Shown piece by piece: positions 7,742 through 32,440 of a stretch of 64,000 nt of DNA (positions are counted from its first letter, which is position 1; each line of letters opens with the position of its first letter). The stretch is from positions 22,239,499 to 22,303,498 of the forward strand of contig JALGQZ010000015.1 in the NCBI GenBank assembly GCA_023105745.1, given 5' to 3'. A model generated the notes under the pieces. It searched no databases. It saw nothing but the letters and a program-made list of their open reading frames with translations, and was not told the DNA's origin. Source of the stretch: Austropuccinia psidii (taxonomy: Eukaryota; Basidiomycota; Pucciniomycetes; Pucciniales; Sphaerophragmiaceae). The position numbers and the translations under genes were made by a program.

Positions 7742-7786
7742 CACCAGGGCGAATCTCGCGTCAATCGTCGGCGATTGACTTCACGT
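7742..7786 (+). repeat. Left terminal inverted repeat
   Basis: 45 bp, matching the reverse complement of 29874-29918 at 43 positions (C/T differences at positions 9 and 16). Inside it is a perfect 8-bp stem, GTCAATCG-TCGG-CGATTGAC (7760-7779), which could fold as a hairpin or act as a dyad binding site for the transposase. Confidence 0.85.
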
Positions 7787-7935
7787 AACACCGCTGTCAG
7801 TATAAAATCTTGCTTCAGTCGCGTTAGTGTCACTTTATAGTCACTGGATTTAGTGGGTCACGTCACGTCAGCATCAAGACAACGTCAATTGTCACATGTG
7901 TCACATGAGAATGTCACTCAAATCCCAAACCCATT
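7787..7935. promoter_or_regulatory. Left subterminal region with GTCAC/ACGTCA words
   Basis: About 150 bp just inside the left end with many copies of GTCAC and ACGTCA, for example GGTCACGTCACGTCAGC and TTGTCACATGTGTCACATG. The right end has ACGTCAAGC twice and GTCGAGC twice. Subterminal short repeats bound by an element-encoded protein are typical of CACTA elements. Equivalence here is inference. Confidence 0.45.
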
Positions 7936-8019
7936 TCAACACTATTCACAATGTTCGGGTAATTTCACCTCATTGGCTTCTGCATCCCCAACTAATCTAC
8001 CCTGATGCTTCACATGCTT

Positions 8020-8632
8020 ACGAGCCCGCACTGCCCTCCAGATGAGACTCCGACACTGCCCCCCCATCTCCGTCCTCACCACTCCTTACGCTTTCACACC
8101 CCCACCCATACCATCTTTATGCTCATGTGGTGCACTCCCGACATGCTCCCAACATCACTTATCCTTACGCTCGCTCAAGTGCCCTCCCGATATGCTCCCG
8201 ACACTGCTTACGATCATTACGCTCGCGGAGTGCACTCCCGACATGCTCCCAACACCAATTATCCTTACGCTTGTGTAGTGCCCTCCCGACATGCTCCCGA
8301 CACTGCTTATCCTTACGCTTGTGTAGTGCCCTCCCGACACTGCTTATCCTTATGCCTGTGTAGTGCCCTCCCGACACTGCTTACCATCCTTACGCTCGCA
8401 GAGTGCACTCCCGACATCCTCCCAACACTGCTTACCATCCTTACGCTCGCGGAGTGCACTCCTGACACCACTTATCCTTTGCTTGTGTAGTGCCCTCCCG
8501 ACACCACTTATCCATACGCTTGTGTGGTGCCCTCCCGACATGCTCCCGACACCACTTATCCTTACGCTCGCGGAGTGCCTCTCAACATTCTCCCGACACA
8601 ACTTATCCTTACGCTTCCGTACTACATCCATA
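8020..8632. repeat. Minisatellite array 1
   Basis: About a dozen degenerate head-to-tail units of roughly 36, 48 and 51 nt. Each contains TTAYCCTTACGCTTGTGTAG or CTCGCGGAGTGC followed by CCTCCCGAC and TGCTCCCGACACTGC. Many units carry the 12-bp palindrome GGAGTGCACTCC. All overlapping ORFs are by-products. The array is GC- and CpG-rich, in contrast to its surroundings. Confidence 0.85.
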
Positions 8633-8658
8633 GTGTACGGTGGCTTGTTGGCGTACAC
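8633..8658. repeat. Palindrome site a
   Basis: Near-palindrome with perfect outer arms GTGTACG/CGTACAC around a GGTGGC-type centre. First of six related sites in the giant transposon (others at 11511, 15418, 19762, 19898 and 25623). Followed by about 500 bp without genes up to 9158. Confidence 0.55.
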
Positions 8659-9157
8659 CATGAACGCAATCGCCGAAATATGCTGAGTGGCCTTCTCTGC
8701 CAACAGGACCTAAGGGGAAATTGGTCAGTATATTCACAATTTTGTGGTTAGGGTTTAAATCATGAGACTCACAAATTAAAACCTAATAAGTGGACTATTT
8801 AAGACAAGAATTGTGTCTCCTGTTTCCCTGACAAACCCATTTTATTTCACATCATTCAAATGGAACACTTTGCTTAGTCCTTACCTCATGAGTGTTGAAT
8901 AGTTCAAAAGTTGACTTTAGTAGGTTTCTAACTAGTCAACTTTATTCAATGTCTCACAGGGAAGTGATTTCAATTGCATGATATGAAATAATTTGCAAAA
9001 CATCGCCTCCTTCAATTTCCCGACAAATCGCATTTTGCAAATGCAATTATTTTACTTGCACCTTTTGTCTTCAATTTGGATCTTTTTATTCAAAAATTTT
9101 CAAACAAGTTATCAATCAACTTGTCACCATATATTTGCTTAATAAACTACCTCCGCT
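8659..9157 (+). other. Upstream region of first cargo gene
   Basis: No ORF. Moderately AT-rich 5' flank of the gene starting at 9158, with no clear TATA box. A short near-repeat occurs around 8740-8800 (TTAGGGTTTAAATC). Confidence 0.35.
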
Positions 9158-11392
9158 ATGGCCCAAACCCCGGGAAATTCACATGAATTCAATGAACATC
9201 CAACTTCAGCCTCAGAGAGTGGAAGTGAAATCTCTGATATCGCCAGTAGTCGTGAATCAGGAATTGAAGTAGAGAGCCAGTCTCATGAAGATAATCAAGA
9301 TCCACCAGTTCTTCCAGAATGTGAGTATGCATCCATCTTGAATATTTCTAATCTCCCAAAACCTGATATTGTGTCATAGCCTTTATTTCAGGTCAGCCTC
9401 CAAGCTCTCAGAAGCTGAATTTTAAAAGTTATGAGAAGGAAAAGACTGTTGGACCTTGTGCACCGACAGAAGATGATGGGCAAGATGATGTAATTTTCAG
9501 TGGGGAGGTGGAAATTATATCCAAGGAACAATTTGTCACCAACATTGCTCAAACAATCCCAAGGCTTGAAAAAATCCAAAATGATAGTAAAATTCCTGAT
9601 TATGTGCATCAAAAGATTTGTGAAGCCATGAGCCTGCTCAAAATGGATTTGAACCATAAGTCCATTACTAATTCAAAACAAAGTTGATAAAAATAGCTGC
9701 TTACAATATATGGGCAGGTGTGGAGGTGGGAGATTCTCTACCTGAAGGATCTCGAGTCGTAATTGGATTTCCAGGAAAAGGATTAGGAAAAAGACCAAAT
9801 ATACATGCAACCAAAAAAACAAACAAAAAACGCCGTACCTTTGAAGCCGCAAAAGATTCTCTGGATCAAGGTCATTAAATTATCAATGGTGAAGGGGACC
9901 ATATTGATAATCAACCTCTGCATACTCAACCCCCCCAATACTCAATGAAACAATCCATGATGAAGCTCCACATACTGAAAGCCCCCCGATACCCAATGAA
10001 ACAATGCATGATGCAACCCCTCCCGCCTCTCCTCGGAATATTCAAGCCTTTCAAGAAAGGGAAACAATTAAACATGATACAATGGGACGAGATATGACTG
10101 ATATAGTTCCTGACCCTGAGCCCAAAGTGTCATCGTCTGCTAATTTTCAAGAAATATTTTTATCCCACATGGAAGAGTTTGCAGGCATTTTGAATTATCA
10201 TTCCAATATTACTCAACAATCATGGAAAAGGGGGCTTGATAATATCAATAGTATTTACAAAAATTGATGGGACAATTTACCAACAAAAGATGCTCATACA
10301 TTGCTGCCTGTTGATATTAAGGTGATCAGTAACCGAGAGCTTAAAATGTCAGCCTGGCTGGAGGACCTTGAGATGGCAGGTGAGTTTTATCTTTGTGCAT
10401 GATACATGTTTATTGGCTGTTGACTGGTGATATAAATTGCAATATACAGGGTTAGATTTTTTTAAGCCAACCAAAACATAAGCGTTTTTTGATCACAACA
10501 TTTGGAATCTCAAATTGATTAAGGAATCAGCTAAACCTCCAGAGAATCTCCCAAAATCTGAACACTCCTTCTTCAAAATGGTTCAGAGCCTTCTTTACCC
10601 TGCCAATCCAGTTAAAAACCTTTGGGCAAATGTTATGTTTGAATCCATTAGTTTAGTCTCATATGATGTGATTGCACCCAAACCATATGTTGCACCAACA
10701 TCAAATTCGACCGATCCTCTTGGACTCGAACGGGGGGCAGTTGAATACCTTGCCTCCTGCTTGAGTAAATTGAAGCAACGTGCAACCCAACTCAGCCTTG
10801 AAGGTGGCGGGGCTGACAATGAGATATCCACAAGGCCGCACAAGAACCTGGAGGATCTAATGGATACAGTTACCATTTGATGATTGCGTACAACATGGTA
10901 CGTGCACATACAAAGGTCGAAGTTAATGGCATCAAAGGCAAACTCACGAACTAAAAAAAAAATGAGGCCATCAAAGATCTTTTGGCGTGTCACAAGAATC
11001 TCGGAATAAATCGAATTTGCTATGGTATATTAGCGGAATTCTGTGCGGCGGGGGATTGTGGTTTGATGGTATGCTCAGATGACTGGAGAACAAGCTCAGT
11101 TAAAGGGGCTTTATCACTAATTGACATTTCCACAACACTTTCAGAGGGTAAAAATCTAGTGGAGGCAGTGTGGCTACGTACTAAGAAGTACATATGTAAT
11201 TTACTGAATAAAAGTTTCTTCTCATCAGATTCTTTTAACCCCACTGTACCTCTTAGATTTGAATTTGCATTATGCTTAGTATTAGACTTTGGTGATGCCT
11301 GGGTGGCGAAACGCAGTCTTGGTTCAAGTGATGAGGTCACCTTGACGGTACCCAGGTCAGCTAAACTCACAACCAGGATTGACCCGTTTTAG
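9158..11392 (+). pseudogene. Unrecognised cargo protein 1
   Basis: Broken gene with at least two introns. Exon 1 is 9158-9320, intron 9321-9391 (GTGAGT..TTTCAG), and exon 2 starts at 9392. A further intron runs 10380-10449. The N-terminus is Ser/Glu/Asp-rich. Near 9830 is a basic patch (KKTNKKRR) like a nuclear localisation signal. Around 9930-10020 a Pro-rich motif (PP-I-x-NET-x-HD) is repeated twice. The C-terminal third (10515-11392) is a well-formed globular-looking region with CYGILAEFCAAGDCG and several Trp residues. Stops at 9685-9687 (TGA), 10479-10481 (TAA) and 10878-10880 (TGA), plus frameshifts (one in the C-run near 9930), disable it. I recognise no domain. By position it is the first gene inside the left end. 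Confidence 0.6.
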
Positions 11393-11928
11393 ATTAGCTT
11401 TGTACTAGATAGATTGTAATTGAATTTTGTAAAGTGATTTATGAATTTAATAATCATGACTTCCTATACTACTACTGCCCGGATGCCACAGTCTGAGTAC
11501 CAATAGTAATTGTACGGCGGCATGCCTCCGTACATCATTGCAAAGACTCCGACAAGACGCAAGCTGAGTCAGGCGTTGTGCCCGCAAGTAGCACACACGG
11601 GGGCATTGCAGGAAGTCGTGTTTATCACTTCCCGCCAGCCCATAATAGGCCAAAAGTTCCTGTGTCTTTCAAGAGGACTAGGATAGCTAGGGATCCGCAG
11701 CAGGATGCATATTGCATTTGCGTGTTCTTGCAATATTCCAAATGGTTGGATTGGAAAGTGATTGCATGGGAACATCAATATGTAAAATTGAATAATGCAC
11801 TATCCACTGCAATTTTCAGGTTCAGGTATTTGAGATCGCGAATTTGCAAAGGTCAGGTGTTATCTTTCTTTTTAGCCAAAAAAAAAAATCAGTAATCATT
11901 CGGTTTCATTTCATTTTCTGCTGAAAGC
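11393..11928. other. Intergenic spacer, cargo 1 to TET-like gene
   Basis: AT-rich 3' flank, then palindrome site b (11511-11534), then about 390 bp containing a weak ORF (11578-11895) that I do not believe is coding because it has no family resemblance and ends in an A-run. Confidence 0.4.
11511..11534. repeat. Palindrome site b (best copy)
   Basis: 24-bp near-perfect palindrome, TGTACGGCGG..CATG..CCTCCGTACA, with one mismatched pair. It contains CGG-N10-CCG, the inverted-triplet geometry known for Put3-type Zn2Cys6 proteins. It lies between two cargo genes. Confidence 0.65.
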
Positions 11929-13195
11929 ATGCCATTCACAAAAAAAGGAAAAGAGCGTAAAAGGGAACTTGCGAGAAAGCGTCGGGCTGAGGAAGGAAAG
12001 TGTGAGTTTGTCGCTTAATCTCAGTGTATATATATATGCTACCACATTTATGTGGCACCCTCATTGGGCCCCACGGAAGAAAATTGGCTTTAGTCGGTTC
12101 AGATTGTGCCAATGTCATGTGGGCTCCAACAGGGAAGTCAAAGGATGTGTGCCGAAGAAAGCTCCTGGGCAGTATCTGATATCTTGTGTGCTTCAACACA
12201 TAGTGATCCCTCAACCACTTGGGAATAGTAGCAGATCCCAAAAGACAAATGAGCGCAAAACGACCCAAATGAATAGGTTGTTTTCCTCCTCTCGCCCAAC
12301 AGCACAAATATCAATGCCAGTATCAGCAAATATCACCCCAAGTGAAATTCGGAGGGTTGTGGATGTCAATCAGATCAAATGCATTCACTTTGGGCGTGTG
12401 GCAATTTTCTCTTCAACCAGATTACTCATTGCCCTTGTCGAATTCTGACCATTCACAACAATGAGTGAAGTCGAGGTCAATCAATGGAATGAATTATCAC
12501 AATTCTCATTTCGCAAAAAGAGATTCACCGACCCGATTGCAACCAATGGAGCATTACTGGAGGGATTTATGTTCGCGATTGGGTGGCGCAAGTGCAGCAC
12601 GAAGAATGAACAATTTGGTCTGTATGGAAGTGTTGGGAAAATTGAAAACGCAAAAGATGAATGGCAGAACCGAGGTCCCAATCTTAGCTTGGTGGGTTGC
12701 ATTCTAGGTCAATCCTTACAATATGTTGGGAATAATTTATTTGAGAAGATTCAAAATTTCTACAATTCATTGGGGGTTCCGTCTTTTGATCAAGTCAACT
12801 ATGAAGGCAATATTCTGGCAAATCAGGGTGCATTCGAGTTTGCTTCCGCACTCACTTTCACCATGAATAGATTCAAAAACGCACCTCATGTTGATAAGGA
12901 TGCATCGCTGTATGCTTTGGGATGGTGGTTTCAAGCTGATAAGCCGACCGGCCAAATTCAAAGAGATGCGACAAAGCGGTGTACAGGGGGAAAATTGATT
13001 TTCCCAAATTAGCATTTTTGGATTGATCTATCCGCATGTCATGGGCTCATTCAGGTAGTGTGGGCCAGTAATACATTTGTTCATTATACTGATCCAGCGC
13101 AGGACAACAAAAGCACGACACTTGTGGGTATGTCCGCACAATGCTCAAGCAGGTTAGCAAAAACAATGCGGCAAAAAAAGCCATGGATATTATGA
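11929..13195 (+). pseudogene. TET/JBP-like 2OG-Fe(II) dioxygenase relic
   Basis: The family oxidises 5-methylcytosine or thymine in DNA using Fe(II) and 2-oxoglutarate. A likely start at 11929 gives a very basic N-terminus (KKGKERKRELARKRRAEE). After a shift of frame the reading runs through a Cys-containing segment (KKIGFSRFRLCQCHVGS) and then 12461-13012 with LTFTMNRFKNAPHVDKDAS, where H-V-D (12887-12895) matches the iron-binding HxD. Past a stop, the frame continues with CHGLIQVVWASNTFVHYTDP, which supplies candidate distal His residues (13040 or 13082). In-frame stops at TGA 12446-12448, TAG 13010-13012 and TGA 13193-13195, and the early frameshift, make it a pseudogene. It matches tet-like oxygenases I remember from rust fungi. 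Confidence 0.7.
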
Positions 13196-13387
13196 GATTG
13201 GCAAGAGAGCGGGCTATCAAATCAGGGATGGTAATACAATCTCATGCCGATTCAAAGAATGAGGAGATTTGCATGTGTGTTGGGTGAGTAATGGTGGGGT
13301 AAGGCAGAGGACAATAAACACCAGGATTGGATGGATTCGAGTGCGGGAGATGGGTGTCTCACATGAAACAGGGGTGAAGTGGATTAT

Positions 13388-15413
13388 TGTAAGGTTTGAC
13401 TATGAAACAATAAGTAAAAATTACTAATTATTTACTTATTGTACTCTGAATGTCCTTATAATTGAAATAAATAAGATTAAAATAATACTAATAATAAAGA
13501 AATATTATTATTATGGCGTAAAAATATTATATTATTAAATAAATATAATAATATAATTAATATTATATGAAATTATAATATTATAAATAATATATTAATA
13601 TAAAATAATTAATAGATTATAAAGCTCTTTATTATTGTTACCAACAAATAATAAAGGCGTAAAAAATTGTTTTTTATTAATAAAAAACAATTAATAACAA
13701 TAATATTACTAATATTAAAGTTATGAATTAATATAAATACTATTTATATTAATTAAAGAATTATTAAGAGAGTAATAATAGAGAAATTATTATAATAAGA
13801 GAAAATAACCTACTTTGAACACTTAATATAATAATTTTGAAGTATTTTACGCCAAAAAATATAAATACAACCTTTTCAAATTGTATTTACAATAAAAATA
13901 AAGAAAATTACAAATTATTCAGTATTTTTACGTGGAAATGAGTTTTAGAGAGATTTTTAACAAAAACAATTAAATAAATGATTTAATCACGTCAAAATAG
14001 ATGATTATAGAAAGGTGGTCTTTGGTCTTTAATAATATAACAGTTTTATATATAAAGAATAAAGAAAATTACCTTTGATTTGATTGATTTAATGTTTTTG
14101 ATGCGTCTGAGGGGAAAATAGAGTAAAAAGAGCTCTATTTATAGTAAATACCTCCCTCCTAGAGTCCAACAGGCTTTTAGTAGACGTGTACTGATCATAT
14201 CCACTGGAATTGATCAATATTTTAAGGTTTGAGGGTGATTACATCATGATCAAACCATATTACATCATTATTACACCATTATTTAAAGTTATCACTATAA
14301 CTCTAAGTTTGATGACATCAGAGGCTTGGCAGAACCCCAAATTTCGTGGATTTTATTAGTTTTAATCATAAACTAATAGTATTCACCAATTTTATCACTC
14401 TTAAGACTGTTAAACTTAATTTAAGGTTACAGTATGTGATCATAACAGCTCAATTTAAGCTCAAACTTTGATCCTCAATAACTTTTAAGGTTTTCACGCT
14501 ACAGAAATTCAGAGAGTGAATTCTGATAGCCTGACATAACCTTATTATGCTGCCAAGAGCTTTTCATTACATCATCAAAACTCTAATTTTGATGATTTTT
14601 CTTGTAACCCATCTTTTCTGTCGAAATTTAATATTTTAAACTTCAAACCATGATTTCAGGGGGTTATACCCTGAATTTAACAATAAAAATTACGTCATTC
14701 TTCTCGAATAAACTAGTAGAATCCAACTGTATACTTTTTTTTAAGTTTGGACTACTTTCACAACAAAGTGGTCAACAGCTCTGTTGATTTTTATCAATAT
14801 TTCCTCATAAGTCTTAAGGTTGTTTATAATTTGCAAAATAAAGTTCATATCTGTGTTCTTACAGTAATTACGTGGTAACTTTATTTTTGGTTCATCATTC
14901 TAGCATGTATAGTTTAGAAGATATTAGCTATGATCACTGAATATATGCGTTGACCAAAAAAGTGCATATATTCAGGATAATTCCTTAAGTATTGATTTTG
15001 GGAATTAGCTTATTAATTGTTTTATATGTGGATTTTTGTGGGGAATCCACTGGTACAATTTATTTCACATGTTGTTTCATTAGTTTCTGAGATAAATAAG
15101 GTTTTATGATTTTTATAAGGTATTATACCTTATAATTCCTTAAATATTGACTTTACAGATATGCCATAAAAGTGGTATATGTGTATTTTTCCATGGGGAA
15201 TCCAATTGTATAATTTATTTCACATGTTCATTCATTGGTTTTTAAGTTAAACCAATTTTAGTACCAATTTATGGTATTTTTTGTATATTTGAGTAATTAT
15301 TTTTAGTGTATAATTATTCTAATTAATTTTAATATAATTATATTAAAGGTATAATTATTATTAATCTTTTTTGTGACCTTATTGGATATGTGGTCATATC
15401 TCAAAGGCTCACA
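13388..15413 (-). mobile_element. Solo LTR-3 inside the giant transposon
   Basis: 2026 bp, extremely AT-rich, reading TGTGAGCC...CTTTACA-like on the minus strand (plus-strand ends TGTAAGG..GGCTCACA). Perfect 5-bp TSD ATTAT at 13383-13387 and 15414-15418. It aligns over its full length, inverted, with the solo LTR at 41611-43588. There is no internal coding region, so it arose by LTR-LTR recombination. It sits between the TET-like relic and minisatellite array 2, and its right TSD directly abuts palindrome site c. Confidence 0.9.
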
Positions 15414-15417
15414 ATTA

Positions 15418-15441
15418 TGTACGGTGGCATGCCATCATACA
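15418..15441. repeat. Palindrome site c
   Basis: TGTACGGTGG-CATG-CCATCATACA: left arm intact with CGG, right half-site decayed (CAT for CCG). It overlaps the last base of the LTR-3 TSD, so the LTR inserted right at the palindrome. Confidence 0.6.
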
Positions 15442-15925
15442 TCTGTCCTGGTTTGTTGCTATTGTCCAGGATGCCAATGCTTCACACGCGAATCCTTATG
15501 CTTGTGCAGGTTCCGACGATGCTAAAAGTTCCTTACGCCTATGCAGGGTGCCGACGCTACACACGCCAATCCTTACGCCTGTGCAGGCTCCCAAAAACTT
15601 ACACACCAATCCTTACGCTTGTGAAGGTTCCCAAAAATGCTAAAAATTCCTTATGCCTGTACAGGCTTTCGACGATTCACACACCAATCCTTACGCTTGT
15701 GAAGGTTCCCCACAATGCTGCAAATTTCTTGGCCTGTGCAGGATCCCAAGAATTCACACGCCAATTCTTACGCCTGTGCAGGCTCCCAACAATTCACATG
15801 CCAATCCTTACGCCTGTGCAGGCTCCCAACAATTCACACGCCAATCCTTACGCCTGTGCAGGCTCCAGACAAGTCACACAACAATCCTTACGCTTGTGAA
15901 GGTTCCAGACAATTTAAACAATTTA
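15442..15925. repeat. Minisatellite array 2
   Basis: About 11 units of 40 nt with longer variants. The unit reads ATCCTTACGCCTGTGCAG then GCTCCCAACAATTCACACGCCA. The core ATCCTTACGCYTGTG is shared with array 1, and GCCTGTGCAGGC inside the unit is an imperfect palindrome. ORFs here are artefacts of the repeats. Confidence 0.85.
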
Positions 15926-16323
15926 ATACATGAGTAAGATTAATAGCGTGTGACCATAGGAAAGGCCATGTTTCACAAATCCGGAGTGGATTGCTCACAT
16001 GCGGGAAGCTCCCGCTTTTTTACAGTTAAGAATGGATATGGCTCTAAACCATGGAAGAAGAGAATATATAGGGGACGGTAACGGCAACTATTGGCGCATT
16101 TTGGGAAAAAGAGGTTCACTCAAACTCTTGGTGGGGCACTTACAAAAATAATTCTCACGAAATCAGGGTTTTTCTCTGAGGAGGAAATAAGTAACTTTTA
16201 CGTGAACAAAGAATGTAATAGAATTTGAACATAATAATGATTGAATACAAATGATAATTTATTTAAAAGAAATTATTACAAATGATAAAAAGTGGAAATA
16301 ATGAGATTATTTTTTTTAAATTT
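15926..16323. other. Spacer downstream of array 2
   Basis: About 400 bp with no ORF or recognised motif, AT-rich towards the right. It should contain the 3' end of the minus-strand zinc-cluster gene. Confidence 0.35.
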
Positions 16324-17622
16324 TTATTTTTTGAGGAATTTGGAGACTATCCCTGTTATTTCCTCCTTTGGATAAGCCTCCAGTGCCTGGGCAAGGAGGG
16401 AATTTAGTTTGTCCCGGAATTCCCAGTGCATCTCATTTCGATGAGTTGCATCCACAAAAGGAATTATGTGGAGCAAGCGGCGATGCTCCAACAAGATTCG
16501 GTTGATCAATTCGTGGATGATGGCTCGAGGAATCATTAGGGTTGGTCGCAGGTCAGTGAATTCCTGGAGAGCGTCGTCGTGGGAATGAGAGGAGCTTGGC
16601 ACCGGGGGGGAGGAGGAGGTTTAGTTCTCTGGGGAGGGAGGGGAAGATGGCCGAGTTGGTGAAGAAGAAGGGGGATGGGGGGATCCGACGGGCATATCGT
16701 CAATGATGATTATTGAGCGAGGAGTGGCGGGATGAGCTGGAGACGGTCGAAGAAAAAATGAGGAAAAGGGGATATGGATCAAAGAGAAAAAAGGGGTGAC
16801 TTACCATAAGGTTCCTCCGTGGATTGCGTAGGAGCCACCTCAGGTTCTGGCTCACGAGTCGTATTGTCCTCAGGTGGTTGGGACGATGGACTCGGGCCAG
16901 GAATAGGTGGCTCTTCGGTTCAGGAGGGTTCTAAAAAAGGAGTAAGAGTCAGTTCACTCGACTCGAAAGTGAAAGTGAAAATGAAATGAAACTTTGGCTG
17001 CTTACCACGGAATAATTCCTCAGACCATTGGGTGCCACTCGGGCCTGGAGTGGGTTGCCGGGGGGTTTGCTCGCGAGGCAAACTAGGAACGGGACAGTCT
17101 TGTCAGGGGGGATTTGGGGGGTTTTGTTCTATGAGTAATGGAAAAAAGTCAGTATTATTGCGTGAAGAGAAATGAGATAAGGAGGAGAAAGAAAACTTAC
17201 TTTGGCGTTTGAATCCCATCGGTGACAAGACATGGTGACGATCAGCCCAAGCTCGAATGTCCTCTCGCCATCGCCATCCTTCATCAGCCGGATAATCACT
17301 TTGCTCCGGTCAAGGAGTGAAGTGACCATCGGATGGTGGCCTAGGAGGGGGAGGGGACAGGGCTAATCGTCCGGAATCGTTCCCGTCAGCCTGTTTGGGG
17401 GCCCGGCTTCCATTCACGCTCGCAAATGGTTTCATCATTGTTGACCACAAAGGAGTCCTCGCGAGGGCGTCTTGGGCGGGAACTCCTCTGGCCTCGTGGT
17501 CAGAAGGGGTGGACAACAAACGAACATTTCTTGTGTGCTTGTCAGCAAGCATCACAAGCGTTGTTCGTCGTCGAGGAACGAATGCAGGGGATACCCCGCT
17601 TGGTGCATAAAGTGCACGACAT
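16324..17622 (-). pseudogene. Zn(II)2Cys6 zinc-cluster protein of the giant transposon
   Basis: Minus-strand, multi-exon gene. The ATG at 17622-17620 directly follows a splice-acceptor-like TTTTTAG, so an untranslated first exon is likely. Residues 3-33 have cysteines C-x2-C-x6-C-x9-C-x2-C-x6-C (MSCTLCTKRGIPC...), exactly the Gal4-type binuclear cluster that binds CGG triplets. Then follow basic/Arg-rich sequence, Pro-rich exons (about 17110-16985 and 16935-16805), and a final exon (about 16770-16324) with a predicted helical segment (IPRAIIHELINRILLEHRR) ending SKFLKK. Stops at 17544-17542 and 17502-17500 (TGA, inside and just after the cluster), later TGAs and a frameshift in a C-run disable it. 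Likely nuclear regulator of the element; role is inference. Confidence 0.65.
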
Positions 17623-18044
17623 CTAAAAACATAACAATTGGACTTAGTAACTGCATACAAAGTAAACAATCAAGAAAGAAAATGAAGGCGTACGATGAAT
17701 TATAAATTTAAAGCGTTAACAAAATAAAGAACTCTACTCGGAAGGTTTTAAAAGTCTGGAAGAGAGTCGTGAAGAAAAATAAGTATTAATATTGGTATGT
17801 AATGTCGACAAAAGTTTAAAAAAGAGGTAACGCACGAGGTGGATAGAAGTGAGGTTCTGAACGGATCAGAAGAATAAACAAACAGGCAAAAGGCAGGGGA
17901 GTGGGGTTAGTGTAGTGCGAAAGACAAAAGTAGAAAGGCAGGAAGACCAAGGGGAATACGCACAAGAAGGACACATGCGGGAAAGGTTGAACGAAGTGGA
18001 GCGGGTGAGGAAGAAAGTGAAGGGCGTGTCGTGTGAAGATGGTC
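17623..18044 (-). other. Leader of zinc-cluster gene
   Basis: Between the TATA-like box and the ATG. No credible ORF. The acceptor abutting the ATG suggests a leader intron, but the donor is not certain. Confidence 0.4.
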
Positions 18045-19897: not shown

Positions 19898-19921
19898 TGT
19901 TCACTGACACACCAGCGAACA
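19898..19921. repeat. Palindrome site e
   Basis: TGTTCACTGA-CAC-ACCAGCGAACA: imperfect palindrome of the same layout as site d, 136 bp further right. Core triplets are altered (CAC/GCG). Confidence 0.5.
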
Positions 19922-20289
19922 TGGCCGCATGCCTCTAATATGCCCCTCCACAATAAGTTTCTACAACCCACCCAATCTCGGATATGCTAATGTCAACCTT
20001 GTTCCACCAAAGGTTTCGTAACTTGCTGCAGATCCAGCAGTCATATTGGTGCACCCACATTTTGGCCACCTTGCCTTGATATATGCCCCAAATTGGATAT
20101 GAAAATTATGAGCCCGAGAGGCCCACCCCCATCAAGTCCATGCACGTAACCACAGGCCATCCCCCCTTGACCCCATTTCTGCCTCTCATATAAGCTCCCC
20201 ACCTGCGCTTATCTGTCTTCATTAAGTTTAGCTAACCCTTCCCGATCATATAATTTCCGACTATCCCCAAATAATTTAAAATAGCTATC

Positions 20290-22711
20290 ATGTCAACCCC
20301 TTCACAGCCACTTTGCATTGGGATGATTAATATTTGTATTCAAATAAATAGTGATATAACCTTAAATCCTGAGAATTCCCACTTAGCTTCTTGGATTATC
20401 ATATGGCACAATCAACACAACATATTTGTTTATCTCCCCAATCACCAGCATGCTATTGGCTCTCTACCTGGAACCCTTTCCAAAACGTTGATACCATTCC
20501 TTGGGGCACCAAAACCTCTCATGAACTGTGGTCCTGGTGGGGCATGGATTGAAAATTGCCAATCCAATCCTACTCAAATATTATTTGTTGAGGGAGTATT
20601 TATGACTGATGCAAATGATCCCTCCTCATCTCAGAAACCCAATCTAGCATTGATGTTCTTCACATGGTATCCAAACATTTTATTCATAATGGAAAGCTTT
20701 CAAACACAAGATTTCAAGCTTAAAATGCCCAAAGAATATGACTGTAATACTCATAGTCAATGTCAACTCTTTACTCCGACATTTCCCGCTTCAAACTCGA
20801 CGCCAGCTTCATATCCTGCTGTTTCATCATTGATTTCCAAGCAAAAACTGATACAATTACCCAGTGGATCAGACCTCCCCATGATGACCCCGCCCCATGC
20901 CATTATTCAAACCCCCCTCCTCCCTCATCAAAAGACCAGACTAGCTTTTCTCTGGGATTGAGAAATCCACAATGGCCAATCAGCCCGTAACCTTTGGGCC
21001 ACCTCACCCCCAGGATCCACTTTCAATGCCAGGCACATCATTACAAACAAGGTTGTTAGATCATTTGAATCCCTTTCGACCAATACCCCTCTTGGAGGAC
21101 TGCTTGCGGATGATATGGGTTTAGGGAAAACCATTCAGGCCATTTCTCTAATTGGTACCTCCAAGGAGCGGATGATTGAAAACCCCCATCGCTCCACGCC
21201 CATCATGATCATCTGCCCCCCTTGCTTAATTACCAACCGGCAATCAGAAATATCCAAGCATGTTCAGGCTGGAGCGCTGCATTCCAAAATCTACCATGGT
21301 CCCACTCGTCACTCATTATCCGAGGCCGACATCTTAAAATATGATATCATCATCACTTCTTACAATACTATCACCCAAGAATTGAAGCAAACCAATACCT
21401 CTACATCATTCATTTTTCAAATCAAGTGCCATCGTATAATTTTGGATGAAGCACAGTGAGGGTCTGATCTTAAATGATTCAAATTACCTTTTATATCCAA
21501 TAACCCTTTCCCCATCTTATAGCTATATTTGCTCTCAATACACTGCCACTCACTGTGCCATTAATAGCCTCCTTTCATCCCGTCAAATATGTTTAACGGG
21601 CACACCTATTCACAACACCATTTATGACCTTTTGGGCATAATATCATTCATCACTCAACCCCAGAGCGCCAATCAAGATAACTGGTCAACATTCATCCTG
21701 AGTAGTCTTTCCAAAGGTTGCAATGATATCTTGCATTTATAATTGCGGCATTTAAGTTTGCGCCGCCCCAAAACCACACATCTCGAATCCCTCCCCACTA
21801 TTAGCCATCATTATGAGCTGCTCCCACTCAACCCAACCATGCAGCAAGAATATTCAATATTATATGAAGAATTCCTATCATCCAAAAGCAAAGGACCTGG
21901 AGAATTTTTCAGAAATATCAATAAGCTGCAAATATGTTGTAACCATCACATCATGCTTAACACAATTGCAGAGGCAGATTTGGAAGACCCCGAGGGCAGG
22001 AGCACTCAGGATAACTCCCCAACAATCACACAAACTATTGTGGATGTGGAAACATGCATGATGAGTAGTAAAATTGCACACCTCCTACAAAGCTTAATGA
22101 AGAACAAACAAACAAGGTGTGGTCCAACCAAATCGGTGGTTTATATCCAATGGACCCAATTTCTAGATTTGTGCGTTAATTCTAATATGCATCCATTACC
22201 AATTGAATCCATCTGACTTTTTCATATTGTAGAATTGGTATTGCACTTTCCCATCACTCTATCCTTTCAGCACAAATTGATGGAACAATTACAGCACGAG
22301 CACATGAGAAGGCACTGGAGAATTTCTTCAATAATCCTGAATGTGAAGTACTGATTGCATCCATTGCCGCAGCTGGAACTGGCATCAATATAACTTGTGC
22401 TAATACGGTCTATTTAATGGTGAGGTGACCCCCAAAATTCTGCCCTGATTTGCGGCCCCTGACATCCACATTTCCAGGAGCCCAATTGGAACCCAGCCAT
22501 TGAGGCTCAGGCTGTTGATCGACTCCATCATATTGGCCAACAACAACCTGTAAAGGTCATCCACTATATCACTCCTCATTCAGTTGAGGTCAACATGCGG
22601 AAGGTACCTTTCAAGATCATCTTTGACCCTAATTGTATTGCTATTCTAAAATCCTTCCTTATGGAAATACCATTTTCCAAACACCAATAGGTCCAAGAAA
22701 AGAAAAAATAA
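20290..22711 (+). pseudogene. SNF2-family helicase-like ATPase
   Basis: Swi2/Snf2 (Rad5/Rad16-like) DNA translocase. Exons 20290-21455, 21523-22170, 22233-22419, 22478-22603 and 22691-22711, all with GT..AG introns of 58-87 nt, give about 715 codons. Residues 1-220 are a non-conserved N-terminus. Motif I is DDMGLGKT (21109-21132). Motif II is DEAH with the His codon split by intron 1. Motif III is LTGTP (near 21598), then AAGTGIN (near 22375) and the motif VI region QAVDRLHHIGQ, where the usual Arg is His. No RING domain is seen. Two in-frame stops, TGA 20959-20961 and TAA 21740-21742, break an otherwise open gene. In this element it probably remodelled or opened chromatin. That is inference. 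Confidence 0.85.
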
Positions 22712-23028
22712 TTAACTGCATGAGCCTTACTGATATTATATAATTTGTGTTTGACAAAGTTGATAACTCTTGTTCACCCTGGCATAGGTCCACAATTATG
22801 AACACCATGAGTTGGATCGAACTCCTTCAATATTTCCTCAATGAAAATGAGCAATAGAGTCTTATTTCTAAGGGAGACGGTGATACATTCCAATTCATAT
22901 TGTCTATATTCTGGCATATTTAGCAAGTTGTTGAATCTTTAAGAAATAATACTCAGATTGTATTACACCTGCACAAATAATTCACAAAATGTTAATTTGT
23001 AACGGTGCTATACATTTATATTACTAAG
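22712..23028. other. Short spacer between convergent genes
   Basis: AT-rich 3' flank shared by the plus-strand SNF2 gene and the convergent minus-strand gene. No ORF or motif seen. Confidence 0.4.
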
Positions 23029-25056
23029 TTATTGCAGAGCATCACCATTCGGCCTAATAACTGGCATGTCAAGTATTTTGAGGGCGTTAGTCTGCATCTT
23101 ACTACAGCCTTTGAGCCAATCTTGATCAAATACCTGAAATGATAAGCCTTCCAGAATATCACCATCATCTGTCGATTGTAATTCTGGCAATCTATCAATA
23201 GTTTTTCTACCCTTTTTTTTAATGCAATTGCAAAACTCTATGTCTCGATCCATTTTTAATACCAATTCATTAAATAACTGGGAGCGCCAGCGTAATCCCA
23301 CTTTGCGGTAAACTTGACGGCCATTTTCCAGTACCTCCTCAGTATCTGAGCATACTCGAGGGTCATTGAATTGTGATGCTAGAATGGGAAATTCAGCCAT
23401 ATCACACCATTCACAACGGCCCTCACAGGTCTGCACATAATCAAGTAGATCATCATCAGTCTTTGCTCACAATGAAGAAGAGATACATTAACTAACCCTT
23501 TGACAAATCTTTGCGAGCTTTTGATTCTCGTTCTTTTTAACCAAATACTGTTCATGCTTTTGAATAGACTTCCATTCTCTTTTCAAATAAGTGAAATATC
23601 GCTCCATTAACGCCGCCACGACCCCATAGTTATTATGATCCTTGTTCCAACAGTAATGATGATACTTGGTGCTGACCGGTGCAAGACGGAATGTACGGTA
23701 AAACACCATAGACATCAGCTCATTGAATGGATGTTGCCATGAGCTCTCCCAGTCCCAAGTGAATCGCTTTAGTCCTAACTTGTGGAGCTCATTTTTGCAG
23801 TAGCTTTGGAAGCCCTGAGACTGAACCTGTGTTGATGGCTCATTGAAAAAATCTTCGGGGACATAACCGAGATGACCAGCCACTTGAATTGCAATTTCAC
23901 GCTCTTCTGTGCCTGGTGGTGCTGGTAGTGAGGAAAAATGTGCACTGCTGATCTCATTCCATGGACATTCTCTGGAAGTTCTGCTTTCAGCCATTCTTGT
24001 TGCTCCTTCTGGCTTGCACGTTTCGCCACATTGTGAGCTTTACGAGCCTGGTTCCTTTGCTGTCTGACGTCGGATTGTTCAAGCATAATCTGGGCAAGGC
24101 CCATTTGAGGATTGGTGAACTCATTATTTGACTGAGTGCTATGCTCATGCGCCATGAAATTGTCCCTCCTTGATTCATCATTTGTTTCCATTTGAGTCGG
24201 AGACATGTTCTCATCCTCATCATCCACCATTTTTCTCTTGATGAACTGGCATGAGGTGTTCTTGGTTTGGAGGCATATGGATGATGACGTCCAGAGACTT
24301 TCTCTTTATGGACCAGAGGTGAAGATGCATAAAGTTCATCACCTGCCATGCACATCATCAGTTAACACATCAAAAAATTAATGAAGACTGGTCATACTCA
24401 CAATCTTCAATTGGCTCCTGAGATCAGACTGACTTGCCTTTAGGTGCCATATCTAACCCATGAAACAAAAATATCAAATTGTGAAAAAGGTTATACTCCA
24501 AAATTAAAATGACTTACTTTTATGAAGCGTCAATCCTTGATTTCCCTCCGACAGACCACTCCAAGTTACATTCTCCAATGGTCTTTCTCGTCGCCCCCCA
24601 TCCATGTGCCTTTCTTCACCCACATGAACCTGAGATCCTGATGGAATATTGAGGGTTGGCTGTTTACTTTGGCCAAAGGGATCCTGGGATGCGACTGGAT
24701 TCCAACCGGGATTAAGGAGGAACTCACGTGGAAATTTTGATTGGGGATTAGCGTGTGATGAGATTTGAGGTGTGCCTTCTGGCCCCTGAGACACATGCGT
24801 TTGTGTATTAGTGGGATTTGGGGGAATTGGAGTGACGGAAATATTTGGGATCGACCAAGTGCTTGAAGTTGGAGCCTTTGGATTGCCCACATCAATGTTA
24901 AGACCTGATACATTCATTGAGGATGCGATAGGGGTTGTGAGAGGAATGTTGGGACTCAATGGTGACTATGTTTGAACATATTCTATGCTAGATTCACTAT
25001 CTGAGTCATGAACAGAACCTGAACGGGATCTATGTGACTTGGAAGATGACATAAGG
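23029..25056 (-). pseudogene. Unrecognised rust-type cargo protein 2
   Basis: Minus-strand gene, start near 25056-25054 (MSSSKSHRSRSGS, a Ser/Arg start). Likely introns are 24517-24453 and 24401 to about 24333, and one ends just before the last exon, where acceptor GTGCAG precedes TCEGRCEWCDMAEF. The N-terminal 180 residues are Pro/Ser/Asn-rich and disordered-looking. The middle has a Gln/Arg/Lys-rich, coiled-coil-like stretch (QQRNQARKAHNVAKRASQKE). Next comes a compact region with FTWDWESSWQHPFNELMSM, FYRTFRLAPVSTKYHHYCW and NNYGVVAALMERYFTYLKRE. Stops (TAG near 24967, TGA near 24430) and two frameshifts are present. I recall many rust hypothetical proteins with this middle region. Function is unknown, and cargo or host capture are both possible. 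Confidence 0.6.
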
Positions 25057-26013
25057 GCTGAAAAAGTACAGTAATATTTTTAAATAGATAAAAAACCTCA
25101 GTATTATGATAAAATAGAGTGATATGAGATGAAATCTTTTCAAATTTAGAATAGAGAAATTCTATGAATAGTTGGAACTAAGTATTGCGTGGAAGTCCAA
25201 TAAGCCTCTTTTTAGGAGAATCCTCCCTGCCTCCTCTTGAGCTCCTCCGCTTTTGTCGGAAACCACCCGGCACAGCCTACCACCATATAATGTAATATTC
25301 CCTTGATCTCAAAGGGGACCCATGATCCATAAGTAATCATATTTGGTAACATTTCCGCCTCCCCATTGTCACATTTTGTGAATTATCCAAACTGCCAATA
25401 TATGCATTGAAATTCCACAGCATTGTACATCTGTCAAGGGGTATATTCATGAAGGATTTACCCACAAAAGAGACATCACCTTTTCAAGAAAGGCGAGAAA
25501 ATCCAAATCACATTCCAACCGATTAAAAGCCTGCTGCACTCAAACCAAATACCAAGACTTTAGCTGCACTCCAACCCCTTATGTAATAGAGTTATATCGT
25601 TATGTCTGTAATAAGGTTTAAGCCATGTACGATTGCGTGCCAGCGTACATGGTTTGAATGTCAATCCCCCCAAATCAATGTTGACACATCCCTATTGGAA
25701 CACCCCTCAAGGGTCAAAACCGCAGTATCGCCATGTGTAAATAAAATAGAATATGTATGAGCATTGAGCAGCATGGCATTTTACCCAATTAAACTCCTAA
25801 CCAATTCCGCCATCCAGATGGGACATGTTACACTCCATCAGCTGCAGCTCACGCACCATTACAAATGGCATAAAATTCTCAGCTGGCTCAAATCATCTCC
25901 CCCTTCATAAATAATCACTCAATTTTTTTGCCAATTAATAACACTCCTAAACACTTTCACATCAGCCATAGATATTTATACACAAACCAACCGTACTCCC
26001 AATTCCTGCAACA
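25057..26013. other. Divergent spacer upstream of the transposase
   Basis: Lies between the divergent cargo gene 2 and transposase gene, so it should hold both promoters. It contains palindrome site f. No ORF is credible. No definite TATA box; an AT-rich word at 25970-25982 is the nearest candidate. Confidence 0.4.
25623..25652. repeat. Palindrome site f
   Basis: 30-bp dyad with perfect 9-bp arms CCATGTACG/CGTACATGG around ATTGCGTGCCAG. It sits in the divergent promoter region between cargo gene 2 and the transposase. Confidence 0.6.
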
Positions 26014-29000
26014 ATGACAACCCCCCGCTATTCCTCAATGCGTATATGCATGTGTCAACACTGCTCAACTCAAACACACTCTTCGCCTGAGGGTGATAGG
26101 CCTGGAGTTGCCTTCACACCTTTCCAATATAAACAGAACATTAAGAAGCTCAAATCAACCATTGCACCCAAATCTCTTCCAAACATCCCTACTTCTGCAT
26201 CAGGATCTGAGTGCCAACAACTTCTATTGGATCAAATATTCCCAGCTGATTATTCACCATGGGCCCAAAGCACCTTCTCCACAGCACCGGGGCTCAATTC
26301 AATTGCACAGAAACCATACAGCAGCAGTCAAACCCTTCCTCCACAAGACTTTGGAATGATAATATCTGCCATTCTATCATTAAGGTAGAATATACCCCGC
26401 AGGGCTTCACGCATTCTCAACCCCGCCATAAACCTGCTGATCAAGTCCAGCATCTCAAGCTCCGGTGGTCCCCCCATTCCTGCATTCCATATTCCTCAAG
26501 ATCTGAGTACCATATTTGAACATCTCCAATTGGAGCCAGTGATTCAAAACTATATATGCTGTCCTCAATGTTTCTCTCTTAATGGCCTTACTGAATTAGT
26601 CACAACTGACCAACCCCACTGTCAACGCCATAATGACCCAAATGATCATGATCCCCCTTGCACACAATCATTAGGCAAATTCATCTATTCAGTTGAAGCC
26701 CACATTCAAAACACCACCAACATGAAGCAAAAATTTATACCAACAAAACATTTCATTTATCAACCATTCAAAAATTGGCTTGCCAGATTTCTCCAGCGGG
26801 CTGGAATTATGGACATTCTGCATCAACATCAACAATCCCAAACTCCCAAAGATTCCCCAAAATGTGACGTCTGGGATGGATTGGTCTGGAGACGCTTCAC
26901 TGGCACTAGAAATATCCATGACCCCCCATTCATGTCCATTCCTGGTGCATTGGCCTTCTCCATTTATTTGGACTGGTTCAATGCACATGGAAAGTCCACC
27001 CGGTTGGCCAGCATTGGACCTATCATGCTTATTTGTCTTAATCTCCCCCCAAGTGAAAGATTGAAGCCAGAGAATGTCTATGTTGCAGGAATCATCCCTG
27101 GTCCAAAGGAGCCAACTTCCCTTCAATTGAATTTTTTATTAATGCCACTCATCAACGAGCTCAAAGAGCTATGGCAAGGTTACCATTTTTCACCCACCTC
27201 AACAGGTCCTTCAGGATCCTTTATCCGTGTTGCCATTCTCACAGCCATTGCGGATGTGGTTGCCATGCACAAGCTTACTGGATTTATTTCCCATTCAGGC
27301 AACCACTTTTGTAATTTTTGCACCATTCACAAAGCTCAAATTGAAGAAATTGGTCCTCAATTTCACTACACACGCTCATATCAAAATCATAAATCAACCA
27401 TTGCCAAATGGCTTCGGGCAACCCCACAACAAAGACAAGCAATTTTCTCTGAGTATGGAGTGCGATATTCAATTTTAGAAGACCTTCTGTATTGGGATGC
27501 AACCAGAATGGTTAATCTTGACATAATGCATAATTTAATACTTGGAATTTTGAAGGATCATGCAGCTTTCAAATTGTGCATTCCAGAGTCCAAATCAAAA
27601 ATTTACCTCAGGTCCCGCAGGAAATCCAATGACACCAACAGTTCAGACTCAGATTCCATGACCTCCAACAGCTCTCTTGATAAAATCACATTGAGAGAGG
27701 CCCGCTCCCTGAGAAGAGATGCAGCAAAAATAATACATGAGCCACTCCCCACTACTTCCACCCAAAAAAACAACTTCCCAATGCCGACCCCTCACACGGA
27801 ACATCCATCTAGTGGTTCTGCGGAGATTCCTTCATGTGATGCCGGTTACATCCCCACTTCTGAAATCCCCTCTGAATTGGATATCACTGCACTGAGTGAT
27901 CACCAGATCAAGGGTGAGGCTCTGGAGCATCTCCAAAAAATCATATCTGAGACGATTATTCCCTCATCATGGACAAGAGTACCTCGCAACATGGGTTCCC
28001 CCTCTCATGGTAGCTTAAAAGCCGCTGAATGGGCTGTCTTATATAAGGTCTATATTCCATTTTTAATGCTCAGTCAACAGATGTCATTAGATGTACACCA
28101 ATCCGCAAACACTCAAAGAAAAATGGGTCAGTCAGAAGAACTTGCAAATGAACTAACCAAGAATACATTCCATTTGATTAGTGCTATCAACATTGCCACA
28201 AGTTGGACTGTTTCAATAGATGATGCGACTGCATTTGCTGAACATTGGAAAAAATTCCGCCTTTCCAATCAACTCCTGTTCCCAAAACAGAAAAGTAAAC
28301 CAAATCATCATTTTGCTGATCATATTCCGGAACTCTTCCAACGTTGGGGCCCAGCACAAGCCTCAGCCACATGGGGTTATGAGCGCTTGATTGGAGTATT
28401 TGCAAAAATGCCAACAAATAACAAAATATGTACGTCAATTAATAAGATCAATATATTCACATTGATTAAACACCTGAACTGAATAAGATTAACTTCTGGC
28501 AACTCTGAATAGATGATATAGATAAAACCTTACTTCAACATATCTGTCAATGTTCCAACCTTTCCGTTCTCCTGAAATCTCCATCCGTGCCATGTGAAAT
28601 AAAACAGCTTTTCGAATCACAGCCACCTGCCCTGTTCAATGACCATAAATATAACAAACCATCCTGCCATGACCAAGAAAATTATGATTGCCTGGTTGAG
28701 TACTTACAGAATTTTCATGCAACAAGGGAAATAGTTGATTGGATCAGCTTAGACACTACCGTGCAATCCACAAGTCCTCCCACTTCAAGGATTGTCTCAC
28801 CTTGGTATTTTCCAGTTTCAAACATTAATATTGGGAACAATATATTTTCAACTGAATCCAAAAATGTCAGAAACAGTGTGATATGTTTTCTGAGGGCCAA
28901 CTCACAACCATTTGGTATTATTAATAGCATTTTTAAAGTCTCTGAGCCATCTAGCATACTGAACAATAACTTTCTGATCTTAAAAACTTTGAAGATTGAT

Positions 29001-29174
29001 GTGAATTTCTTACCAGATTGGCCGCATCTGAATATTTATAAAGCTGTTGGTTTTGATGATGGACACTTGATTATATCTGAAGAAGAAATAGAAGGTAACT
29101 GTGGGTTGTATGATAACAAAGTTCTGTCATGTGGACTGCTTGTAATGATAAAGCCGTTATTTCATGAAATTTAG
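26014..29174 (+). pseudogene. CACTA/Plavaka-like DDE transposase
   Basis: Exon 1 is 26014-28429, an 83-nt intron runs 28430-28512 (GTACGT..GAATAG), and exon 2 is 28513-29174, about 1025 codons. Cysteine pairs occur near the N-terminus (CMCQHC, CCPQCF) and again mid-protein (HFCNFCTIHK). Conserved-looking blocks are ALAFSIYLDWFNAHG, IADVVAMHKLTGF, then NLDIMHNLILGILKDH (about 27500-27560), which matches the D-x-MHN signature of Tnp2/Plavaka-type transposases and probably gives a catalytic Asp. PNHHFADHIPELFQRWGP and ATWGYERLIG follow, the latter a candidate catalytic Glu. The only break is an in-frame TAG at 26386-26388. It sits next to the right end, as expected for the mobilising enzyme. KDZ is the main alternative class, but the ends and TSD favour CACTA/Plavaka. 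Confidence 0.8.
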
Positions 29175-29873
29175 TCTACAGAAATGCAAATATCTCAGAT
29201 TCATTAGCAATTTTGCTAGTGAAATAACTGCCTCAAAATTTAGTGACAGAGACATGCCACTGTGACAAGCAAAGCCCATTATTTCACATTGCCACAAAGA
29301 ACTTACTACTTTGACATTGGGTACAGTGTGGATAAGCCAAGTTCAATGATCAAATGACCCACACACTCACCTTTCACAGCATCCAAAATTTCTAACTGCG
29401 CCATCATCATGTTGGAAGGGGAAGCGCCGCTTGCGCACCCGCACACACCAATGCACACGCAAGCGCACCCGCACCCGCACACACCAATTCACATACAAGC
29501 GCACCCGCACACGCCAATGCACCCGCACACGCGGTATTGTGCCGCGGGCTCTACCAGTGTCACCTGCAAAACGACAATCCTGCTCAGGCGGAGTCCTTTT
29601 ATGGATGACCTGGTGAAGTCAAACCCCCTTCCTACATCAAGACTGGCTGAAGGACCTCTTTGATGTGTGTTTGTGCAAACAGGCAGGTCTTGTGTAATTT
29701 TTACCAACCATTGGAAGGTTGCGGGATGATCAGGTGGTGAGGAATCTGAGTTGAAGGCACAGGGGAACCAATATTGGTGGATTTCACAGGATTTGGTGTA
29801 AGACCAGAGTAGGATGTGTGCTCGACGTTTGCTTGATTTTCGCTTGACGTGAGCTCGACTTTTATCCTGCTTG
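29175..29873. repeat. Right subterminal region with small array 3
   Basis: No gene. 29430-29535 is a short tandem array of GCGCACCCGCACAC and CACACGCCAATGCAC units, sharing CACACGCCAAT with array 2. Closer to the end, read inwards, ACGTCAAGC occurs twice and GTCGAGC twice, like the left subterminal ACGTCA words. Confidence 0.6.
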
Positions 29874-29918
29874 ACGTGAAGTCAATCGCCGACGATTGAC
29901 GCAAGATTCACCCTGGTG
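29874..29918 (-). repeat. Right terminal inverted repeat
   Basis: Reverse complement of 7742-7786 with two C/T differences. It ends CCCTGGTG, followed by the AAT TSD at 29919-29921. Confidence 0.85.
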
Positions 29919-29921
29919 AAT

Positions 29922-32426: not shown

Positions 32427-32440
32427 ATCATGATCCCCAC

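What the first reader, a model, noticed from the sequence alone, without database searches (positions are those of the whole stretch)
7742..29918. 22-kb CACTA-like giant transposon carrying a chromatin/DNA-modification gene set
Seen: 45-bp inverted repeats (CACCAGGG...), perfect AAT TSD, precise interruption of one gypsy pol codon context, and a CACTA/Plavaka-type transposase next to the right end. Between the ends are TET/JBP-like, SNF2, Zn2Cys6 and two unrecognised genes. Known: CACTA elements have CAC ends and 3-bp TSDs, and usually carry one or two genes. A six-gene element with DNA-oxidation and remodelling functions is unusual and may define a rust-specific family of giant transposons.
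Basis: partly seen in the sequence, partly recalled or inferred. Interest (0 to 1): 0.95.

Follow-up and report, generated by a model that had tools for sequence, protein, structure and literature searches.

The report
Giant rust transposon carrying anti-silencing genes
A 20-kilobase jumping gene, present in thousands of copies in what is almost certainly the myrtle rust genome, carries its own DNA-demethylation-type enzyme and a chromatin-remodelling-type enzyme, and its sequence suggests that natural selection has kept both working, probably to help the element escape being silenced.

Summary
7742-29918 is a CACTA/EnSpm-type DNA transposon with 43/45-bp TIRs and an AAT TSD, inside one Gypsy polyprotein frame between 97%-identical LTRs. 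The element proper is about 20.1 kb, because 2.03 kb inside is a nested solo LTR. Probes of 29-30 bases give 4,314 TIR, 2,953 transposase and 2,660 TET hits genome-wide; controls 0. Between two subfamilies TET (pN/pS 0.22), an unknown minus-strand gene (0.26), transposase (0.34) and SNF2 (0.49) look constrained, while differences within one group are near neutral. The cargo was therefore probably kept for use by the element. The Zn2Cys6 label is not supported. TET-bearing EnSpm in rusts are published (Kojima 2025), and 16-20-kb EnSpm are known from a red alga. Apparently new: the selected co-cargo of SNF2 and the unknown gene, and the scale. Best reading: an anti-silencing module. The organism is almost certainly Austropuccinia psidii.

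The parts
7739..7741 (.). left TSD AAT
7742..7786 (+). left TIR, 45 bp, begins CACCAGGG; 7 CpGs in 45 bp
   Evidence: CpG count read from the sequence
8113..8615 (.). minisatellite array (36-51-bp units), variable between copies
9146..11389 (+). putative gene A, several frames; longer frames (233 and 320 aa) in copy c10a; no sign of selection; only a weak sub-threshold CDC24 match
12464..13180 (+). TET/JBP-type 2OG-Fe(II) dioxygenase; HVD motif at 12887, in-frame TAG at 13010, candidate distal His at 13082 (motif roles recalled); frame open through the domain in 3 of 6 other copies and from HVD past the window's stop in 5 of 6
13388..15413 (.). nested solo LTR (not part of the element), TSD ATTAT 13383-13387/15414-15418; inverted relative at about 41611-43589
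15481..15914 (.). minisatellite array (about 40-bp unit)
16327..17669 (-). putative gene M (Pro/Ser-rich frames of 386 and 350 aa in two other copies); coding status unproven
20290..22687 (+). SNF2-family ATPase in several frames (exons presumed); motif I DDMGLGKT at 21109, DEAQ box at 21445; nearest solved chain of its MF-1 relative P0001 is RAD5
23032..24965 (-). gene N, unknown, up to 460 aa open in copy c8a; constrained between subfamilies; all 120 listed relatives (of 158) are A. psidii
25972..29171 (+). transposase (Transposase_21/tnp2); D195 D289 E665 with C308-C311 and H641-H645 present; TAG at 26386
29874..29918 (-). right TIR, ends CCCTGGTG
29919..29921 (.). right TSD AAT
2570..35345 (-). 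host Gypsy element (pol read on minus strand), interrupted by the transposon; LTRs 2570-3330 and 34585-35345

Best explanation
This is one copy of a high-copy cut-and-paste transposon family of the CACTA/EnSpm type. Besides its transposase it encodes a TET-like dioxygenase, a SNF2 ATPase and at least one unknown protein. The most likely working is as follows. The host silences young transposons by CpG methylation. The element-encoded SNF2 ATPase opens the packed chromatin of element copies, and the TET-like enzyme oxidises 5-methylcytosine on the element, above all at the CpG-dense ends and promoters. The transposase genes are then expressed and the ends can be bound. Gene N may target or bridge these activities. 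Shown: structure, ends, TSDs, copy number, recurring cargo, and a signal of purifying selection on TET, SNF2, N and transposase. Inferred: enzyme activity, the methylated target, cooperation of the two enzymes, and the role of N.
For: Colinear cargo in 6 of 6 copies as far as fetched. TSDs AAG, TCT, TCT, AAT, ATA in 5 of 5 with both ends. 4,314 TIR, 2,953 transposase and 2,660 TET probe hits, controls 0. On contig C1, 45 of 70 listed exact TET hits have an exact transposase hit 13-34 kb downstream on the same strand; 0 with strand labels flipped, mean 1.2 at random positions. pN/pS between subfamilies: TET 0.22, N 0.26, transposase 0.34, SNF2 0.49, bootstrap upper limits all below 0.8; the same exons in wrong frames 0.97-1.94. 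The A. psidii paper reports 5mCpG silencing of young TEs and CACTA as second in proportion after Ty3 (PMC12774611). Copies show the mark of methylation: CpG transitions 0.115 per site against 0.008 at other C/G sites, highest in TCG.
Against: No activity, expression or methylation data were seen for this family. The strong CpG decay of inserted copies suggests that TET does not protect old copies. The TET frame of c10a has no PDB sequence match at E<=1. The selection test rests on one copy (c10a) of a second subfamily, and its six pairs share that copy. Genes A and M show no clear selection. SNF2 and N genome-wide counts could not be obtained (search machine busy).
Confidence: 0.6

Rival explanations
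1. TET and SNF2 serve the transposition reaction itself, not transcription: they clear methyl marks and nucleosomes from the CpG-dense TIRs so that the transposase can bind and cut.
For: 7 CpGs in the 45-bp left TIR within a CpG-depleted genome (sequence; PMC12774611); both left/right TIR differences in the window copy are of the CpG-to-TpG type. Constraint similar to that of the transposase.
Against: Nothing tested separates it from promoter de-silencing; both may be true.
Confidence: 0.2
2. The extra genes are passengers, captured once and multiplied by hitch-hiking, with no benefit to the element.
For: Within the six copies other than c10a pN/pS is 0.70-0.91 for the four genes, with bootstrap ranges that include 1; genes A and M show no clear selection.
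Against: Between subfamilies TET, N and SNF2 are constrained as the transposase is; the TET probe is nearly as frequent as the transposase probe.
Confidence: 0.08
3. A composite: two unrelated end sequences around a pile of nested elements, not one transposon.
For: The window copy does contain a nested solo LTR and minisatellites.
Against: 6 of 6 copies at other places share the same order of genes as far as fetched; 5 of 5 with both ends have matching TIRs and TSDs.
Confidence: 0.02
4. The TET and SNF2 genes work mainly for the host, for instance in epigenome control, and the transposon is only their carrier.
For: Thousands of copies could supply trans-acting enzyme to the whole nucleus (inference).
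Against: Constraint is seen in the element lineage together with its transposase, while differences within the main group are near neutral; Kojima argues likewise for other families.
Confidence: 0.08

Closest known systems
TET+ EnSpm families of Puccinia (Kojima 2025, PMC12730594)
   Same: Rust host, CAC..GTG ends, 3-bp TSDs, Plavaka-like EnSpm transposase, TET/JBP gene; A. psidii is named among hosts of related EnSpm families (passages).
   Different: No SNF2 is mentioned in the main text (0 occurrences); its supplementary sequences could not be read, so this very family may be listed there.
Enlarged EnSpm of Chondrus crispus (Kojima et al. 2013, cited in PMC6431247, passage)
   Same: 16-20 kb EnSpm with 4-5 ORFs.
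   Different: Red alga; its cargo was not compared here.
KDZ (Kyakuja-Dileera-Zisupton) TET+ transposons (Iyer et al. 2014, paper not held; described in PMC12730594)
   Same: Transposon-borne TET genes in basidiomycetes.
   Different: 8-bp TSDs for Zisupton and Zisupton-1_PGr; different transposase.
Arabidopsis VANDAL transposons with VANC anti-silencing proteins (start of abstract of PMC10398659)
   Same: Element encodes a protein that counters its own epigenetic silencing.
   Different: VANC is described as sequence-specific and binding; that it is neither a dioxygenase nor a SNF2 ATPase is recalled.
Starship giant transposons of Pezizomycotina (search listing)
   Same: Large fungal transposons with cargo.
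   Different: Classified by a tyrosine recombinase and up to about 700 kb (abstract start); here a DDE transposase and recurring cargo.

Membership tests
CACTA/EnSpm | ends CAC..GTG | tested here: met
   CACCAGGG..CCCTGGTG in the window; CACCAGGG left ends in 6 other copies and ..GGTG right ends in 5, one of them CCCCGGTG
CACTA/EnSpm | 3-bp TSD | tested here: met
   window AAT plus 5 of 5 other copies with both ends found; 1 of 6 (c3a) had no right end in the fetched DNA
CACTA/EnSpm | DDE transposase of the CMC type, C(2)C and H(3-4)H between second D and E | tested here: met
   D195, C311, H645, E665 invariant and D289, C308, H641 at 90% or more in 13 aligned proteins, window included; PF02992 1.5e-14. 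Which D is the second was judged from the alignment
CACTA/EnSpm | subterminal repeats of the transposase-binding type | tested here: inconclusive
   short motif counts only: CTTGACGT twice near the right end, none at 15000-26000 or in the left 1 kb
Plavaka | termini TGT..ACA or CATCA..TGATG | tested here: not met
   CACCA..TGGTG; Plavaka Pfam score 20.3 under its cut-off 26.3
TET+ EnSpm of rusts (Kojima 2025) | TET/JBP gene inside complete EnSpm ends in a rust | tested here: met
   PF20515 in the window and c10a copies; colinear copies; rust host inferred
TET+ EnSpm of rusts (Kojima 2025) | identity with a published A. psidii family in Data S1/Table S1 | not testable with these tools
KDZ | KDZ transposase, 8-bp TSD | tested here: not met
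   3-bp TSD, PF02992 transposase
Zn2Cys6 transcription-factor cargo | C-x2-C-x6-C-x5-16-C-x2-C-x6-9-C motif | tested here: not met
   no match inside the element in six unspliced frames, one at 4495-4596 outside; no Pfam match in the frames scanned (minus strand of 7742-15499 not scanned)

The most novel reading that the evidence does not exclude
The element carries a complete, co-selected anti-silencing machine: a SNF2 ATPase that opens heterochromatin, a TET-like enzyme that oxidises 5mC and a lineage-restricted partner protein N. This is the reverse of the host coupling between remodeller and methyltransferase, and it let one transposon family spread to thousands of 20-kb copies and help build a gigabase rust genome.
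Probability: 0.35. Interest if true: 0.85.

Novelty: new variant of a known kind. Interest (0 to 1): 0.66.

Why it matters
Whether transposon-borne TET genes do anything for their transposon is an open question; Kojima states that their function is not experimentally validated. Here is a family with a chance to answer it: thousands of copies, in a genome for which 5mCpG data have been published, with TET and SNF2 both showing constraint. It also widens the list of tools that transposons may carry against silencing, by pairing a DNA-modifying enzyme with a chromatin remodeller, and it puts a concrete family behind the statement that CACTA ranks second among TEs in A. psidii.

Tried and rejected
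Rejected: Zn2Cys6 cargo. Rejected: composite or chance ends. Structure prediction of an N relative (P0208) with 20 further A. psidii relatives gave mean pLDDT 45.8, pTM 0.27: no inference drawn. A scan of viral contigs for the transposase found nothing. A first polymorphism scan by codon phase within the copies gave no clear coding signal; it led to the subfamily comparison. One search used wrong frames for A and N and is superseded. CDC24 match in gene A: 6.9e-4, 20.3 bits under a cut-off of 21.3, not relied on. Genome-wide counts for SNF2 and N were tried many times and never answered; the right-end DNA search likewise.
Full report
1. What is there. The stretch 7742-29918 is bounded by a 45-bp terminal inverted repeat matching at 43 of 45 positions, the longest of 64 inverted pairs found in 7600-30100, and by a direct AAT on each side. 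Outside it lies a Gypsy retrotransposon read on the minus strand. Joining 120 bp from each side, with one AAT dropped, gives one frame open across the junction. The two Gypsy halves are one insertion: their LTRs (2570-3330 and 34585-35345) are 97.2% identical over 761 bp. Inside, 13388-15413 is itself a later insertion, a solo LTR beginning TG and ending CA with a 5-bp duplication ATTAT (read from the sequence), absent at that site from all six other copies examined. Its inverted relative lies at about 41611-43589, 78-88% over the aligned pieces. The element proper is therefore about 20.1 kb.

2. Genes. Pfam scans of the frames, stops read as X, give a TET-like 2OG-Fe(II) dioxygenase (1.8e-43), SNF2 (2.2e-9, 7.1e-25) with a weak Helicase_C (3.3e-4, under its cut-off), and Transposase_21 (1.5e-14). 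On the minus strand nothing reached E 0.01 over 15500-30005; minus-strand frames of 7742-15499 were not scanned. Frames in other copies are longer than in the window: TET 439, 407 and 315 aa, N 460 aa, gene A 233 and 320 aa, M 386 and 350 aa; of the transposase, c10a has T0 and most of T1 in one frame of 634 aa. The TET domain is whole in c10a (7.5e-48, profile 3-210 of 211). The frame runs through the domain in 3 of 6 other copies (c10a, c3a, c8a), and from the HVD motif past the place of the window's stop in 5 of 6. The window copy has that in-frame TAG at 13010, between the HVD motif (12887) and the candidate distal histidine (13082); the roles of these residues are recalled. The transposase carries D195, D289, C308, C311, H641, H645 and E665, each invariant or at 90% or more in 13 aligned proteins from rusts, other basidiomycetes and unnamed sources. 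This fits the CMC arrangement described in PMC12730594 (passages). No Zn2Cys6 protein was found.

3. Source. The top seven SNF2 relatives are all Austropuccinia psidii MF-1 (54-84% identity); the next is at 34% in an Aspergillus (120 listed of 2,571 found; only the 7,996 candidates sharing most words were scored). The 54% one, P0007, looks like a fragmentary member of the same family. All 120 listed relatives of N (of 158) are A. psidii. The transposase has 33 rows named A. psidii of 86 found, then Phakopsora (50%), Puccinia graminis (45%), P. striiformis (31-32%) and Agaricomycetes, with many unnamed rows. The genome G000 has 1,015,390,075 bases in 84 contigs, which fits the 1-Gb A. psidii genome of PMC12774611 (passages). 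The name is an inference. In the separate MF-1 data, an N relative and an SNF2 relative share a contig length of 10,839 and near tags (O181_026215, O181_026219), and an N relative has the tag next to that of a transposase relative (O181_019894, O181_019895, contig 13,103). No listed SNF2 relative shares a contig length with a listed A. psidii transposase relative; most MF-1 contigs there are shorter than the element.

4. Other copies. The left-end search scored 40 places of 3,142 first-look candidates, 39 of them other copies at 95-97%. Six were fetched, chosen from the first seven other copies listed, so they are among the best left-end matches. All 6 of 6 follow the window element in the same order through A, TET, M, SNF2, N and transposase; three of them (c3a, c3b, c10a) carry insertions of their own, and in c3a the fetched stretch ended inside the transposase, and 2.5 kb more did not show a right end. 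In the 5 with both ends the TSDs are AAG, TCT, TCT, AAT and ATA, perfect in each. The inner 29 bases of the TIR occur 2,173 times forward and 2,141 times reverse with up to 3 mismatches, control 0, so about 2,150 element equivalents, on the order of 40 Mb if all were full-length (my estimate, an upper bound for these ends). A transposase 30-mer occurs 2,953 times and a TET 30-mer 2,660 times, controls 0. From the listed exact hits on contig C1, 31 of 57 TIR hits have a transposase hit 18.2-29.2 kb inside on the same strand, 2 are right ends, and 24 are unpaired; the lists hold exact hits only, so unpaired ends may be decayed, truncated or non-autonomous copies. 45 of 70 TET hits have the transposase 13.2-34.3 kb downstream on the same strand; 25 do not; 0 with strand labels flipped; mean 1.2 and maximum 5 at random positions.

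5. Selection. Differences were counted per codon, leaving out transitions of the CpG type, codons with stops and codons with more than one difference, for c10a (4.7% from the majority, against 1.9-3.0% for the rest) against the six others including the window. pN/pS: TET 0.22 (bootstrap over codons 0.12-0.49), N 0.26 (0.16-0.44), transposase 0.34 (0.23-0.50), SNF2 0.49 (0.34-0.76), M 0.73 (0.30-2.14), A 1.18 (0.62-2.73). The same exons of the four constrained genes read in the wrong frames give 0.97-1.94. Among the six without c10a the ratios are 0.70, 0.72, 0.91 and 0.82 for TET, N, transposase and SNF2, all with bootstrap ranges that include 1, as expected of dead copies decaying in place. 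The four genes thus seem to have been kept working in the lineage that jumps. This rests on one copy of the second subfamily, and frames were those of the window, without proven exon borders.

6. Methylation marks. CpG o/e is 0.53 in the element (nested LTR included), 0.10-0.12 in the host Gypsy and 0.16 in 35000-64000; this fits youth and does not prove protection, since PMC12774611 reports that younger TE families keep more CpG (section read). CpG sites differ from the majority by transition at 923 of 7,997 site-copies, against 402 of 51,628 at other C/G sites; TCG stands at 0.20 and the other three contexts at 0.075-0.091, in line with the TCG hypermutation of rusts cited in PMC12730594. 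So inserted copies appear to be methylated and to decay, and TET does not seem to protect old copies. Both TIR differences in the window copy are of the CpG-to-TpG type, and the 45-bp left TIR holds seven CpGs.

7. Working model. Host CpG methylation silences young elements. The element brings a TET-like enzyme to oxidise that mark and a SNF2 ATPase to give access, so that transposase is made and the CpG-dense ends can be used. Anatomy, recurrence and a selection signal are shown; the chemistry and the joint action are inferred. A version in which the enzymes act on the ends during transposition is not excluded. As recalled, plant Spm also couples its own TnpA protein to demethylation, but by another protein.

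8. Known and new. Kojima 2025 (abstract, passages and sections 5, 23, 24 part 1 and 34 seen) describes rust EnSpm families with TET genes, CAC..GTG ends and 3-bp TSDs, names A. psidii among the hosts of related EnSpm, and proposes escape from methylation. SNF2 does not occur in its main text; its supplements were not readable here. Enlarged EnSpm of 16-20 kb with 4-5 ORFs are on record for Chondrus (passage of PMC6431247). Searches for SNF2 or giant CACTA cargo in rusts showed no title or abstract start that reports this family, among the rows listed (9 of 9, 20 of 182, 12 of 116, 12 of 126), in an open-licence library only. I therefore file it as a new variant: TET+ EnSpm with co-constrained SNF2 and N, at a scale of thousands of copies.

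Noticed in passing
13388-15413 and about 41611-43589: Two copies of a 2-kb AT-rich LTR-like sequence in opposite orientation (78-88% over the pieces); the first is a solo LTR with a perfect 5-bp TSD inside the transposon.
   Followed up: partly
30713-31162: A 225-bp tandem duplication (96%) inside the host Gypsy reverse transcriptase frame.
   Followed up: no
4495-4596: Zn2Cys6-like cysteine pattern on the plus strand within the host Gypsy span, outside the transposon; the only match in the window's six frames (0.02 expected in shuffles).
   Followed up: no
7742-29918 and six copies: C to T change at TCG is about twice as frequent as at other CpG contexts (0.20 against 0.075-0.091), the published rust hypermutation signature.
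   Followed up: yes
L011:8836-10000: About 7 kb beyond copy c8a a TIR begins that leads into right-side transposon sequence in inverse order: a second copy in opposite orientation.
   Followed up: no
8113-8615, 15481-15914, 29433-29533: Minisatellites inside the element; the first two differ between copies in the alignments.
   Followed up: no
9146-11389: Gene A frame of 320 aa in c10a has a sub-threshold CDC24 calponin match (6.9e-4).
   Followed up: no
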